From positions 1 to 64,000 of the forward strand of contig CAIMFT010000105.1 in assembly GCA_903840385.1 (NCBI GenBank): a stretch of 64,000 nt of DNA, written 5' to 3'. Under the pieces are notes generated by a model. It did no database searches. It saw nothing but the letters and a program-made list of their open reading frames with translations, and was not told the origin of the DNA. This stretch comes from an uncultured Holophagaceae bacterium (lineage in GTDB: Bacteria; Acidobacteriota; Holophagae; Holophagales; Holophagaceae). Made by a program: the position numbers and the translations under genes. Shown here piece by piece: positions 10,459-17,708 of the stretch. Numbering within the stretch: the first letter of the stretch is position 1; every line of letters begins with the position of its first letter.

Positions 10459-10487
10459 TTGACAAGGCCCAGGCAGTTTAACATACT
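10459..10487 (+). promoter_or_regulatory. probable sigma-70 promoter for the lipoprotein pair
   Basis: TTGACA (10459-10464) is a perfect -35 hexamer. With a 17-base spacer the -10 would be CATACT (10482-10487; 4/6 to TATAAT). The expected transcription start falls within the palindromic operator beginning at 10491, so a bound TetR dimer would block it. Confidence 0.6.
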
Positions 10488-10490
10488 TCA

Positions 10491-10509
10491 CCGTATGGAA
10501 TCCATACGG
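10491..10509. promoter_or_regulatory. TetR-type operator, 19-bp perfect palindrome
   Basis: CCGTATGGA-A-TCCATACGG is a perfect inverted repeat around a single central base, located between divergent tetR and the lipoprotein gene and at the predicted start of transcription. A further TTCCGTATTG partial half-site follows at ~10510. Size and place are typical for a TetR dimer. Confidence 0.8.
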
Positions 10510-10533
10510 TTCCGTATTGAGCCAGGAGGCATC

Positions 10534-11358
10534 ATGCGCAGCCCTGCCCTCACCGCCCTCGCCGCCGTGCTGTTGTTGGCCCTAGGGTGTGCCACCCCGG
10601 AATCTGTCCAGCGCCGCAGCAGCCTCACCGCCTACCTGGGGGGGAAGGACGCCGCCCCCCTCACCGCCAGCGGCCCGGCGAAGCTCCAGCTGCCCCTCCG
10701 CCTGGGGGTGGCCTTTGTGCCCAACGAGAGCAGCAAGCGCGCTGGCAACAACCTGGCCTGGGGCGGCGCTCAGTCTGGCCCAGGGGGCCTCATGCCCGCC
10801 GACCAGGAAGCTCGCCTCAACCAGCGGGTGGAAGAGGTCTTCAAGAGCAAGCCCTGGGCCCACTCCTTCAAGATCATCCCCAGCCAGTACCTCACCCTCA
10901 GCGGTGGCTTCGAGGACCTGGACCAGGTCTCCAAGACCTTTGGTGTGGATGTGATTGCCCTCATCAGCGTGGACATCCTGCAGTTCAGCGCCCCAACCTG
11001 GTACTCCTGGACCTACTGGACCCTGGTGGGGGCCTACGTCGTGCAGGGCGACAAGAACGACACCACCGCCCTCATGGACGCTGCGGTCTACCATGTGCCC
11101 AGCCGCACCTTCCTGTTCCGGGCCGGCGGTCTGGGGCAAGTGAAGGGCAGCAGCAGCTGGTCCAACCGGGAGGACGCCTTCCGCCAACAAGCCCAGCAGA
11201 GCCTCGAGCTGGCCATGAAGGACCTCTCCACCAACCTGGATGGCGGGGTGGTTGGCTTCAAGCAGGACATCATCAAGGGCGCCCGCAAGGACGTGGTCCT
11301 GGTGGACAAGGACGGCAACCCCGTCGGCTCAGCGGGCTACGACCCCACCAAGAAATAG
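10534..11358 (+). CDS. rhombotarget-like lipoprotein
   Basis: 274 residues from the ATG at 10534, which has a strong AGGAGG site 4 bases upstream; the track start (TTG 10459) lies in the promoter. The N-terminus is a lipoprotein signal with lipobox LLALGC. The body has LGVAFVPNES, FGVDVIALISVD, YWTLVGAYVVQGDKNDTTALMDAAVYHVPSRTFLFRAG and VKGSSS blocks that I recognise from the 'rhombotarget lipoprotein' family, often found with rhombosortase systems. No GlyGly-CTERM tail is present in this copy (it ends GSAGYDPTKK). The function is unknown. Probably co-transcribed with the next lipoprotein and repressed by the TetR. Confidence 0.8.
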   Translation: MRSPALTALAAVLLLALGCATPESVQRRSSLTAYLGGKDAAPLTASGPAKLQLPLRLGVAFVPNESSKRAGNNLAWGGAQSGPGGLMPADQEARLNQRVEEVFKSKPWAHSFKIIPSQYLTLSGGFEDLDQVSKTFGVDVIALISVDILQFSAPTWYSWTYWTLVGAYVVQGDKNDTTALMDAAVYHVPSRTFLFRAGGLGQVKGSSSWSNREDAFRQQAQQSLELAMKDLSTNLDGGVVGFKQDIIKGARKDVVLVDKDGNPVGSAGYDPTKK

Positions 11359-11390: not shown

Positions 11391-12059
11391 ATGCGCTCGG
11401 CCGCCCTGACGCTTCTGCTCCTTGCTTCCCTGGCCTGCGCCCGGATCTACCGGCCTGTCGAACTGGCAACCGCCCGCCCCCAGCCCCAGGGCCAGGGCTT
11501 GGCCGGTACCCTGGTGCCCCAGCCCTGGGGCGACAACTCCCGCAACGAGGGAAAAGCTCAGTCGGCTCACCTCCGGGTGCTGGTCCTCGGCCTGGACAAC
11601 CCCTCTGCTGCCGGGCTGGAGGTTTTTCGCCTGGGCGTCCCCGAGGGGGTCACAGCCCTCTCGCCTGAGGCGGCCGCCGACCTGGTGAAGCAGTCCAGCA
11701 TGCTGCACCTCCTCTACCCACTGATCCCGGCCCTCCTGTCTGCAACCTCTACTGGCGGCGGGGGTGCCAACTACATCGGACCCACGCCCGCGATGGTCTT
11801 TGGAGCCATGGCCGTGGTGGGTCTTCTGATCGGGCTTCCCAACCTGGGCGTGGCCAACACCAGCAACCGCCGCCTGGCGGAGTTCTTCCAGACCCGGGCC
11901 TGGTCGCCAGGGCGACTGGAGCCGGGCCAGAGCCGACGTGGCCTCGTGTTCTTCCGCTGCCAGGACCCCGAAACAGCCTTCCCGGTCCAGCTCTTCTACC
12001 GCACCGGGGACAAAGAGCAGGTGCTGGATCTGACCTGTCCGGCGCCTGCACCCCGGTGA
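11391..12059 (+). CDS. hypothetical lipoprotein, second gene of TetR-controlled pair
   Basis: 222 residues, ATG preceded by GGAGG. Signal peptide with lipobox LASLAC. I do not recognise a family. The mature part begins with a short polar stretch, then [25 protein letters not shown], a hydrophobic glycine-rich middle ([31 protein letters not shown]) that may insert in or contact membrane, and a beta-rich end ([25 protein letters not shown]). It lies 32 bases after the rhombotarget-like gene, suggesting the two products act together in the envelope. Confidence 0.7.
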
Positions 12060-12100
12060 ACAAGCTTCCAGCGAGGCTAGACTGGAGCTTCGGAGCGCCC

Positions 12101-12877
12101 ATGTCCCTCGTCATCGCCGGCAAGACCCTCGAGAACCGCCTCGTCCTGGGGACGGGCAAGTACAAAGACTTCGCCACCATGCAGGCCTGCTATCGGGCCG
12201 CCAGGGTGGACATGGTGACCCTGGCGGTGCGCCGCTTCAACCTGGAGGCCCAGGGCGAGGAGAACATCCTCAACTGGATCCCCAAGGACATCGCCCTGCT
12301 GCCCAACACCGCGGGCTGCTATACCCGGGAGGACGCCCTGCGGGTGGCGCGCCTGGCCCGAGAGGCCCTCAACACCCCCTGGGTGAAGCTGGAGGTCATC
12401 GGGGACGCCAAGAGCCTCTACCCAGACAACGAAGAGACCCTGGAGGCCGCCAAGATCCTCGTCAAAGAGGGGTTCATCGTCCTGCCCTACGTGAATGCCG
12501 ACCCCATCCTGGCCAAGAAGCTCTGCGATGCCGGCTGTTCAGCGGTCATGCCCCTGGGCAGCGCCATCGGCTCGGGCCTCGGCGTCCAGAACCCCATGAC
12601 CCTGCTCCTCATCAAAGAGATCACGGACAGCTACGCCATTCCCATGATCGTGGACGCCGGGGTGGGTACCGCCTCCGATGCAGCCCTCGCCATGGAGCTG
12701 GGCGCTGACGGCGTGCTGCTGAACACCGCCGTGGCCGAGGCGGGCGACCCCATCCGCATGGCCCAGGCCATGGACCATGCCGTCCAGGCCGGCCGCCTGG
12801 CCTTCGAGAGCGGGCGCATGCCCAAGCGCCTCTTTGCCAGCGCCAGCAGCCCCATGACGGGCGTCATCGGGACCTAG
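12101..12877 (+). CDS. thiG: thiazole synthase
   Basis: 258 residues, starting at the ATG in GAGCGCCCATGTCC; the track GTG at 12056 overlaps the previous gene and adds non-family residues. ThiG hallmarks: [11 protein letters not shown] near the start, the Schiff-base lysine in [36 protein letters not shown], and phosphate-binding [27 protein letters not shown]. It builds the thiazole phosphate of thiamine from deoxyxylulose phosphate, dehydroglycine/iminoglycine and sulfur carried by ThiS. No other thiamine genes are adjacent; a thiS lies ~28 kb away at 40943. Confidence 0.96.
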
Positions 12878-14676: not shown

Positions 14677-15075
14677 TTACCAGCCCATGGCCCGAAGACC
14701 GGCTTCCAGCTCGGGGAGCTTGTCGGGCTCCGTGTGGAGGAGCACCCGGAAGGGGCGCGGGGCCAGGTCCTCGGCCACGACCGCCAGCACGGCCAGCCAG
14801 GTGGTACCGGCGGAAGGCGGGGCCTCCTGCAGCAGTCGATCCGCCTCCAGGATCAGGAAGGTGCCCCCCTCGGGGAGGTCCGCCAGGGCATCCCGGAAGG
14901 CATCCCAGGTGCCCCCGAAGTGCGAGGGGAAGCCCGCCGCTGCCGCCCACTCGGCCAGCAGGGCGTCCCGGGTGGTCATGTGGGCACCCCGGAGGGTCCA
15001 GAGGGGCCCCGGAAAGAGGGCCGCCAGAGCCTCGGCGGCCACCGGCCCAGGCCAGGCCAGGACCGGCCCTGTCAT
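14677..15075 (-). CDS. barstar-family ribonuclease inhibitor
   Basis: 132 residues, no signal peptide, hence cytoplasmic. The central block FPSHFGGTWDAFRDALADL matches the barstar core (FPxYYGxNxDALxDxL); Asp58 and Asp62 correspond to barstar Asp35 and Asp39, which plug the ribonuclease active site. Surrounding strands (LWTLRGAHMTTRDALL, TFLILEADRLLQ, FRVLLHTEP) fit the barstar alpha/beta fold. Its ATG overlaps the stop of the ribonuclease gene (ATGA), so toxin and inhibitor are translationally coupled. It ends at a TAA about 70 bases before nemA-like 13526-14608 begins on the same strand. Confidence 0.9.
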   Translation of the reverse strand: MTGPVLAWPGPVAAEALAALFPGPLWTLRGAHMTTRDALLAEWAAAAGFPSHFGGTWDAFRDALADLPEGGTFLILEADRLLQEAPPSAGTTWLAVLAVVAEDLAPRPFRVLLHTEPDKLPELEAGLRAMGW

Positions 15076-15485
15076 CGGACTTCGACGAAGGAGCGGTAGT
15101 GGTCAGCGGTGTACCAGGCCCGCCCATCGCTGCCGGTCACCAGGCGCTCGGCGCCGCGGTGCTTGCCCACGGCCCGGGGCCGCACATCCCACTCGCGGTA
15201 CTCGATGCGCTTGCGCCGGCCGTCGTAGCGGGGCAGCAACCCCTCATAGTTCCCAAAGACCCGGCCGCCCACGTAGCCCGGCGCCGGGAAGCCATGCTTG
15301 CGGACATAGGCCAAGGTCTCCCGCACCTGGGCCGGAACAGGGTCGCGGGGTGCTGGCTGGACCTGGGCCACCAGCAAGGTCTGCGGCAGCGGCGCCTGGG
15401 CCGCACGGAGCACCCCGGGCAGGAGGACGCCCAGGCAGACCAGGCCCACAGCCAGGTATGCCAGGAGCCTTCGCCAGTGGGTCAT
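15072..15485 (-). CDS. secreted barnase/RNase Sa-like guanyl-specific ribonuclease
   Basis: 137 residues from the ATG at 15485, which has a strong GGAGGA site; the longer track start is spurious. Residues 1-31 are a signal peptide (basic start, hydrophobic core LLAYLAVGLVCLGVLLPGVL, then AAQA). The mature ~100 residues match microbial N1/T1-type ribonucleases: YVGGRVFGNYEGLLP, EYREWDV with catalytic Glu98, GAERLVTGSDGRAWYTADHYRSF with Arg114 and His129, equivalent to barnase Glu73, Arg87 and His102. All catalytic residues are intact. The inhibitor gene follows with a 4-base overlap; the MFS gene ends 31 bases upstream on the same strand, so the three may share a transcript. Confidence 0.93.
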   Translation of the reverse strand: MTHWRRLLAYLAVGLVCLGVLLPGVLRAAQAPLPQTLLVAQVQPAPRDPVPAQVRETLAYVRKHGFPAPGYVGGRVFGNYEGLLPRYDGRRKRIEYREWDVRPRAVGKHRGAERLVTGSDGRAWYTADHYRSFVEVR

Positions 15486-15516
15486 GGGTCCTCCACGATG
15501 ACGGCAGTTTACCGCC

Positions 15517-16982: not shown

Positions 16983-17708
16983 ATGGTCGTCCCCCCCCGC
17001 CGAGTCTGTCCCAGCTGCCAGCACGCCCTGCCGGCCCTGGCGGCAGAGTGCCCGGAGTGCGGCCTGACCCTGGCCCCGCCCCAGCAGCCGGGACGGCGCA
17101 TGCTCTTCCAGGCTTCCGCCCTGGCCCAGGCCACCTTCGAGCCTCCCTCCCGGGCCCTCATGGCGCCGGCCCTGGGCCGCGTGACCCCGGTGGCCGTGGA
17201 CGTGAGCCCCGAGGAACTGGTCGCCACTGACCTGCCAGCCCTGCCACTGGCAGCACCAGAACCCACCATGCCAGCCGCCCTGGGCTTCACAGAGCATGTC
17301 TCCAGCTTCGCCCCCCTCCTGTGGGTGGAGCTGTCGGATGCCCTCCTGCTGGCGGTGGTTCAGGGTCTGGCGCTGACCCTGCCTGCTTTGGCCCTCGGGG
17401 TGTCACCCCTCCGCCTGGCCTCGGAGGCCTGGGTCTATGTGATCCCCTACCTGCTGGTGGTGTCCTGGTTCCTGTTCCTGGCCCCCCTGCTGCTCATCGG
17501 GCAGACGCCCAGCATGGGGTTCTTCGGCGTGGCCCTCCCGGAGAACGCCCCCCACCGCCGCGCCATCTACTCCCTGGCGCACCTGGTCTCGGTGTGCTGC
17601 TTCCCCATCAGCCTGCTCTGCATGGTCCTGGGCGAGCGCCACCAGACCCTGGCGGAGATCCTCACCGGACAGGAGCTTCTCGCCCTGCCGACACCCCGCC
17701 TGCGCTGA
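16983..17708 (+). CDS. zinc-ribbon plus RDD-like membrane protein
   Basis: 241 residues. The N-terminus carries a four-cysteine zinc ribbon (CPSCQHALPALAAECPECG), then ~80 residues of low-complexity linker rich in Ala/Pro/Leu, and a membrane part with about four hydrophobic segments. The end LLLIGQTPSMGFFGVALPEN ... GERHQTLAEILTGQELL resembles RDD-family proteins, in which the last motif follows the final helix. The role is unknown. It stands divergent from the MFS gene and convergent with kimA. Confidence 0.7.
   Translation: MVVPPRRVCPSCQHALPALAAECPECGLTLAPPQQPGRRMLFQASALAQATFEPPSRALMAPALGRVTPVAVDVSPEELVATDLPALPLAAPEPTMPAALGFTEHVSSFAPLLWVELSDALLLAVVQGLALTLPALALGVSPLRLASEAWVYVIPYLLVVSWFLFLAPLLLIGQTPSMGFFGVALPENAPHRRAIYSLAHLVSVCCFPISLLCMVLGERHQTLAEILTGQELLALPTPRLR

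What the first reader, a model, noticed from the sequence alone, without database searches (positions are those of the whole stretch)
14677..15485. Overlapping secreted RNase Sa/barnase-like toxin and barstar immunity pair
The ribonuclease has a signal peptide and intact Glu98, Arg114 and His129 catalytic set; the next gene encodes a cytoplasmic barstar with both key Asp residues (58, 62). The 4-base ATGA overlap couples them. This is a compact two-gene antagonism or nutrient-RNA scavenging module, outside any polymorphic-toxin delivery cassette, in what looks like an environmental acidobacterium.
Basis: partly seen in the sequence, partly recalled or inferred. Interest (0 to 1): 0.75.

Follow-up and report, generated by a model that had tools for sequence, protein, structure and literature searches.

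The report
Conserved exported RNase–barstar pair in Geothrix
Two overlapping genes of a Geothrix species encode a barnase-type RNA-cutting enzyme made for export and the inhibitor that protects the cell from it; this well-known kind of pair sits at a fixed chromosomal place across the genus, usually with a lipid anchor that this species has lost.

Summary
15072-15485(-) encodes a PF00545 ribonuclease (E 4e-16) with a signal peptide, and 14677-15075(-) a PF01337 barstar (E 3e-12); they overlap by ATGA. Models match solved barnase/binase and barstar folds. Catalytic Glu98, Arg114 and His129 are invariant in 58 loci; barstar Asp58/Asp62 are conserved or conservatively replaced.

The organism is a Geothrix (Acidobacteriota). 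39 of 47 Geothrix genomes carry the RNase, exactly the same 39 the barstar; the rest lack both. Among 297 Acidobacteriota no RNase lacks a barstar, whereas nine genomes have a barstar alone, one beside a 3' stub of the lost RNase. The pair is single copy, syntenic and not polymorphic, with its own conserved -10 box. This fits a resident exported RNase with a cytosolic safety inhibitor, as in Bacillus, better than a mobile antagonism cassette.

One correction: in 32 of 35 Geothrix examined the RNase has a lipobox cysteine (predicted lipoprotein). The window species and its two nearest relatives have an ordinary signal-peptide end instead. 'Secreted' therefore means exported through the inner membrane; release from the cell is not shown. 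New member of a known kind.

The parts
15072..15485 (-). Exported guanyl-type ribonuclease (barnase/RNase Sa, PF00545), 137 aa; E81, E98, R110, R114, H129 active-site set
15396..15485 (-). N-terminal signal peptide MTHWRRLLAYLAVGLVCLGVLLPGVLRAAQ; lacks the lipobox Cys present in 32 of 35 Geothrix orthologues
   Evidence: sequence reading
14677..15075 (-). Barstar (PF01337), 132 aa, no export signal; D58 and D62 correspond to barstar D35 and D39
15072..15075 (-). ATGA overlap of RNase stop and barstar start; the start overlaps the stop by 4 bases in 22 and by 1 base in 12 of 35 Geothrix
15506..15511 (-). Conserved promoter -10-like box TAAACT (TANACT in 35/35 Geothrix, 24-31 bases before the RNase start codon)
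15490..15494 (-). Shine-Dalgarno GGAGG (GGAG in 35/35 Geothrix)

Best explanation
The pair is a resident two-gene operon. A short promoter after the MFS gene drives an mRNA on which the RNase is translated first and the barstar by stop-start coupling (inferred from the overlap). The RNase precursor is exported by the general secretory route; in most Geothrix it is then lipid-anchored, while in the window's clade the lipobox is lost and a soluble protein is released into the periplasm and perhaps beyond. Outside the cytosol it cuts RNA with guanyl preference using Glu98/His129 with Arg110/Arg114, most likely to degrade RNA from dead cells or the surroundings for nucleotides and phosphate. The barstar stays in the cytosol and blocks any RNase that folds before export by putting Asp62 (and Asp58) into the active site. 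Shown: genes, families, folds, residues, conservation, linkage. Inferred: activity, binding, export route, nutrient role.
For: Families and folds. Invariant catalytic residues; guanine-site Glu81 in 57/58. All 26 RNase-bearing Acidobacteriota in a sample of 297 also carry a barstar, nine have a barstar alone, none an RNase alone. Genus: the same 39 of 47 genomes carry both. Fixed synteny. In G115 the barstar survives beside a 3' stub of the RNase in ATGA overlap, as expected if only the RNase is harmful. RNase core mean difference 0.19 against 0.21 for YceH within the genus, so no sign of diversification. Own -10 box in 35/35. The genome also has two 5'-nucleotidase C-terminal domain matches, compatible with nucleotide salvage. 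A Bacillus relative is induced by phosphate starvation (PMC5021464).
Against: No activity or binding data. No phosphate-regulation motif was demonstrated. Release across the outer membrane is not shown: type II secretin matches stayed below the family cut-off. Eight genomes lack the pair, so it is dispensable. A lipid anchor is not what one expects of a freely diffusing scavenging enzyme, though it suits a periplasmic or surface one.
Confidence: 0.66

Rival explanations
1. Antagonism: the RNase is a bacteriocin-like toxin that enters neighbouring cells, and the barstar is the immunity protein of the producer.
For: Barnase domains serve as toxin tips with Imm-Barstar in polymorphic systems (PMC3482391); six of ten plasmid relatives are RHS toxin tips; toxin-then-immunity gene order with overlap.
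Against: No receptor-binding or translocation domain in the 137 aa; no toxin-delivery genes among the neighbours identified; single copy, syntenic and slowly evolving across the genus; no phage match.
Confidence: 0.17
2. A lipoprotein toxin transferred between cells by envelope contact, in the way of SitA lipoproteins of Myxococcus; the window clade has lost the anchor.
For: Lipobox Cys followed by Gly in 32 of 35 Geothrix orthologues, then a Pro/Ala/Gln-rich linker; SitA toxins are lipoproteins encoded with SitI, with disordered regions after the lipobox (PMC8546572).
Against: SitA families are polymorphic and often on mobile DNA; this pair is neither. No escort domain is visible. TraA/TraB were not searched for.
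Confidence: 0.07
3. An intracellular toxin-antitoxin module (stress or phage response) whose RNase acts inside the cell when the barstar is removed.
For: Two small overlapping genes, toxin and inhibitor; the barstar has no export signal.
Against: The RNase has an N-terminal signal or lipobox in all 35 Geothrix examined; no match in the PADLOC defence models; fixed locus near housekeeping genes.
Confidence: 0.05

Closest known systems
Barnase-barstar of Bacillus amyloliquefaciens
   Same: Fold of both proteins, catalytic Glu/Arg/His set, Asp35/Asp39 equivalents in the inhibitor; export signal on the RNase only.
   Different: Gram-negative host; the genes overlap in one operon; barstar Trp38 and Trp44 positions are Arg61 and Leu67; the usual genus form has a lipobox.
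Balifase and YrdF operon of Bacillus licheniformis (PMC5021464)
   Same: RNase and barstar orthologue in one operon; RNase made for export.
   Different: Phosphate induction is shown there, not here.
RNase Sa/Sa2/Sa3 of Streptomyces
   Same: Best sequence matches of the RNase among solved structures (E 2.8e-8 and 3.1e-8).
   Different: Different phylum; linkage to the inhibitor gene was not compared here.
Simple barnase-barstar gene pairs and Imm-Barstar of polymorphic toxin systems (PMC3482391)
   Same: Toxin-then-immunity order, same two families; the paper calls the simple pairs widely distributed and without notable polymorphism.
   Different: No delivery domains here.
SitA/SitI lipoprotein toxins of Myxococcus (PMC8546572)
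   Same: A lipoprotein nuclease-type toxin encoded with an immunity protein resembles the lipobox form in other Geothrix.
   Different: Different domains, no escort domain seen, not polymorphic, and the window copy lacks the lipobox.

Membership tests
Guanyl-specific N1/T1-type RNase (PF00545) | Profile match above the curated cut-off | tested here: met
   59.9 bits against 24
Guanyl-specific N1/T1-type RNase (PF00545) | Catalytic Glu, Arg and His plus guanine-site Glu | tested here: met
   E98, R114, H129 in 58/58; R110 and E81 in 57/58
Guanyl-specific N1/T1-type RNase (PF00545) | Fold of barnase/RNase Sa | tested here: met
   Foldseek prob 1.00, best E 2.8e-6 to binase, barnase next
Guanyl-specific N1/T1-type RNase (PF00545) | RNA cleavage after guanine | not testable with these tools
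   needs an enzyme assay
Barstar (PF01337) | Profile match above the curated cut-off and barstar fold | tested here: met
   46.7 bits against 23.4; prob 1.00, TM up to 0.82 on target
Barstar (PF01337) | Asp35/Asp39-equivalent contact residues | tested here: met
   D58: Asp in 62 of 64 (others Asn); D62: Asp in 51, Glu in 13 of 64
Barstar (PF01337) | Tight binding to the partner RNase | not testable with these tools
   complex prediction was not on offer; needs a binding assay
Polymorphic toxin system | Large N-terminal delivery region, variable C-terminal tip, immunity array | tested here: not met
   137-aa protein, conserved in the genus, no array
SitA-type transferred lipoprotein toxin | Lipobox | tested here: not met
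   absent in the window protein, present in 32 of 35 Geothrix examined
SitA-type transferred lipoprotein toxin | TraA/TraB-dependent transfer | not tested
   no search made

The most novel reading that the evidence does not exclude
Geothrix carries an outer-membrane-anchored barnase handed to neighbours on contact, with barstar as immunity, and the window's clade has turned it into a freely released enzyme by losing the lipobox.
Probability: 0.06. Interest if true: 0.6.

Novelty: new member of a known kind. Interest (0 to 1): 0.25.

Why it matters
It places a stable barnase-barstar operon in the Acidobacteriota, outside toxin cassettes, and gives a clean natural series (lipid-anchored form, soluble form, clean absence, inhibitor left behind after loss of the enzyme) for asking what such simple pairs are for. 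Geothrix type strains can be cultured, so export, RNA use and competition could be tested directly.

Tried and rejected
NCBIfam gave no family for either protein and PADLOC none. The barstar had no convincing PDB sequence hit; fold comparison was needed. Transcription only from the upstream MFS gene was considered but is not favoured, because a -10 box follows that gene in 35/35 genomes even where the upstream MFS is a different paralogue; no -35 consensus was seen. The type II secretin search was inconclusive. Distance correlation of RNase and barstar (0.67; 0.43 to 0.64 after controlling for thiG or yceH) suggests shared history but is no test of binding. Papers on a lipoprotein RNase of this family: none found. 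A phage origin found no support.

Full report
Observation. The RNase runs from 15485 down to 15072 and the barstar from 15075 down to 14677, sharing ATGA. Pfam assigns Ribonuclease (PF00545, 3.8e-16) and Barstar (PF01337, 3.1e-12), both far above the curated cut-offs. The RNase matches solved RNase Sa2, Sa3, binase and barnase by sequence. AlphaFold2 models from 17-row alignments (pLDDT 84 and 86.5) match binase/barnase and barstar as best hits. This is not a chance pair of ORFs.

Residues. In 58 loci (54 distinct; four genomes were fetched twice) Glu98, Arg114 and His129 never vary; Arg110 and the guanine-site Glu81 vary once each. In 64 barstars Asp58 is Asp in 62 and Asn in 2; Asp62 is Asp in 51 and Glu in 13. 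The barstar Trp38 and Trp44 positions are Arg61 and Leu67, so the contact surface is not a copy of the Bacillus one.

Organism and distribution. Relatives at 66-69% identity over the whole RNase lie in named Geothrix genomes. 39 of 47 genomes of the window's genus carry the RNase and exactly the same 39 the barstar; the other 8 lack both, four of them incomplete assemblies below 90%. In 297 Acidobacteriota 26 genomes carry the RNase, all with a barstar; 35 carry a barstar. Every RNase locus examined has the barstar directly downstream. Beyond the phylum the pair occurs in Gordonia, Dietzia, Rhodococcus, Saprospiraceae and Betaproteobacteria with the same order.

Locus. thiG-yceH-barstar-RNase-MFS-(window gene 16983-17708)-APC permease is kept across the genus, with insertions between. 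In G040, G268 and G305 yceH and the MFS gene adjoin with the pair absent; these three form one branch in a yceH/thiG tree, which fits one loss or an ancestral absence. In G115, another genus of the family, the barstar gene is intact near yceH and thiG, and the RNase is reduced to a 3' stub reading GDHYRTFTEVRP, ending in the ATGA overlap. The barstar thus outlives the enzyme, and never the reverse in this sample.

Expression. A TANACT box lies 24-31 bases before the RNase start in 35 of 35 Geothrix, against 0.016 expected per sequence from base shuffles, and GGAG precedes every start. The sequences are related, so the 35 are not independent. thiG in the window has the same arrangement, so this looks like an ordinary promoter of the genus. 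The barstar start overlaps the RNase stop by 4 bases in 22 and by 1 base in 12 of 35.

Export. All 35 Geothrix RNases begin M-[TIV]-x-W followed by a hydrophobic stretch; 32 have a Cys-Gly at the lipobox position. The window protein and its two nearest relatives (L078, L083; RNase cores 94-96% identical) instead read LRAAQA, ARASQA and VRAAQA there, like an ordinary signal-peptidase site. This is read from sequence, without SignalP. So the ancestral genus form is probably a lipoprotein and this clade has a soluble form. Whether either leaves the cell is unknown; secretin matches were below the family cut-off.

Function. RNase cores differ on average at 19% of positions within the genus, YceH at 21%, barstars at 32%, ThiG at 7%. 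Single copy, fixed locus and slow change argue for a resident function rather than an arms race. Barnase-type RNases of Bacillus are exported and some are induced by phosphate starvation (PMC5021464), and predicted secreted RNases are reported from activated-sludge genomes, mainly Burkholderiales (PMC11495043). I therefore favour extracytoplasmic RNA degradation with a cytosolic safety inhibitor (0.66) over antagonism (0.17), a transferred lipoprotein toxin (0.07) or an internal toxin-antitoxin role (0.05).

Novelty. Simple barnase-barstar pairs are described as widely distributed and non-polymorphic (PMC3482391), and an RNase-inhibitor operon is described in B. licheniformis (PMC5021464). The lipobox form was not found in the papers searched, but the window copy lacks it. 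New member of a known kind; modest interest.

Noticed in passing
L128:7190-7718 (genome G115): Barstar intact while the RNase is reduced to a short 3' stub in ATGA overlap: an inhibitor that outlived its enzyme.
   Followed up: partly
window 15396-15485; L078, L083: Loss of the lipobox Cys in the window clade, against 32 other Geothrix that keep it: a lipoprotein-to-soluble switch.
   Followed up: partly
window 12056-12877: TAGACTGG and GGAG precede an ATG at 12101 inside the listed ORF, so thiG probably starts at 12101 rather than 12056.
   Followed up: no
window 10459-11358: Rhombotarget lipoprotein (TIGR04179, 194 bits against 150), a part of a rhombosortase-type system.
   Followed up: no
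L126:4932-5231 (G298) and G320:C476:555-809: A second, lone, distant barstar of about 99 aa in two Geothrix genomes, beside neither the main pair nor a second PF00545 RNase.
   Followed up: no
L103-L122: The MFS gene upstream of the pair is one paralogue (74-86% identical) in some Geothrix and another (about 40%) in others, while the pair and its -10 box stay.
   Followed up: no
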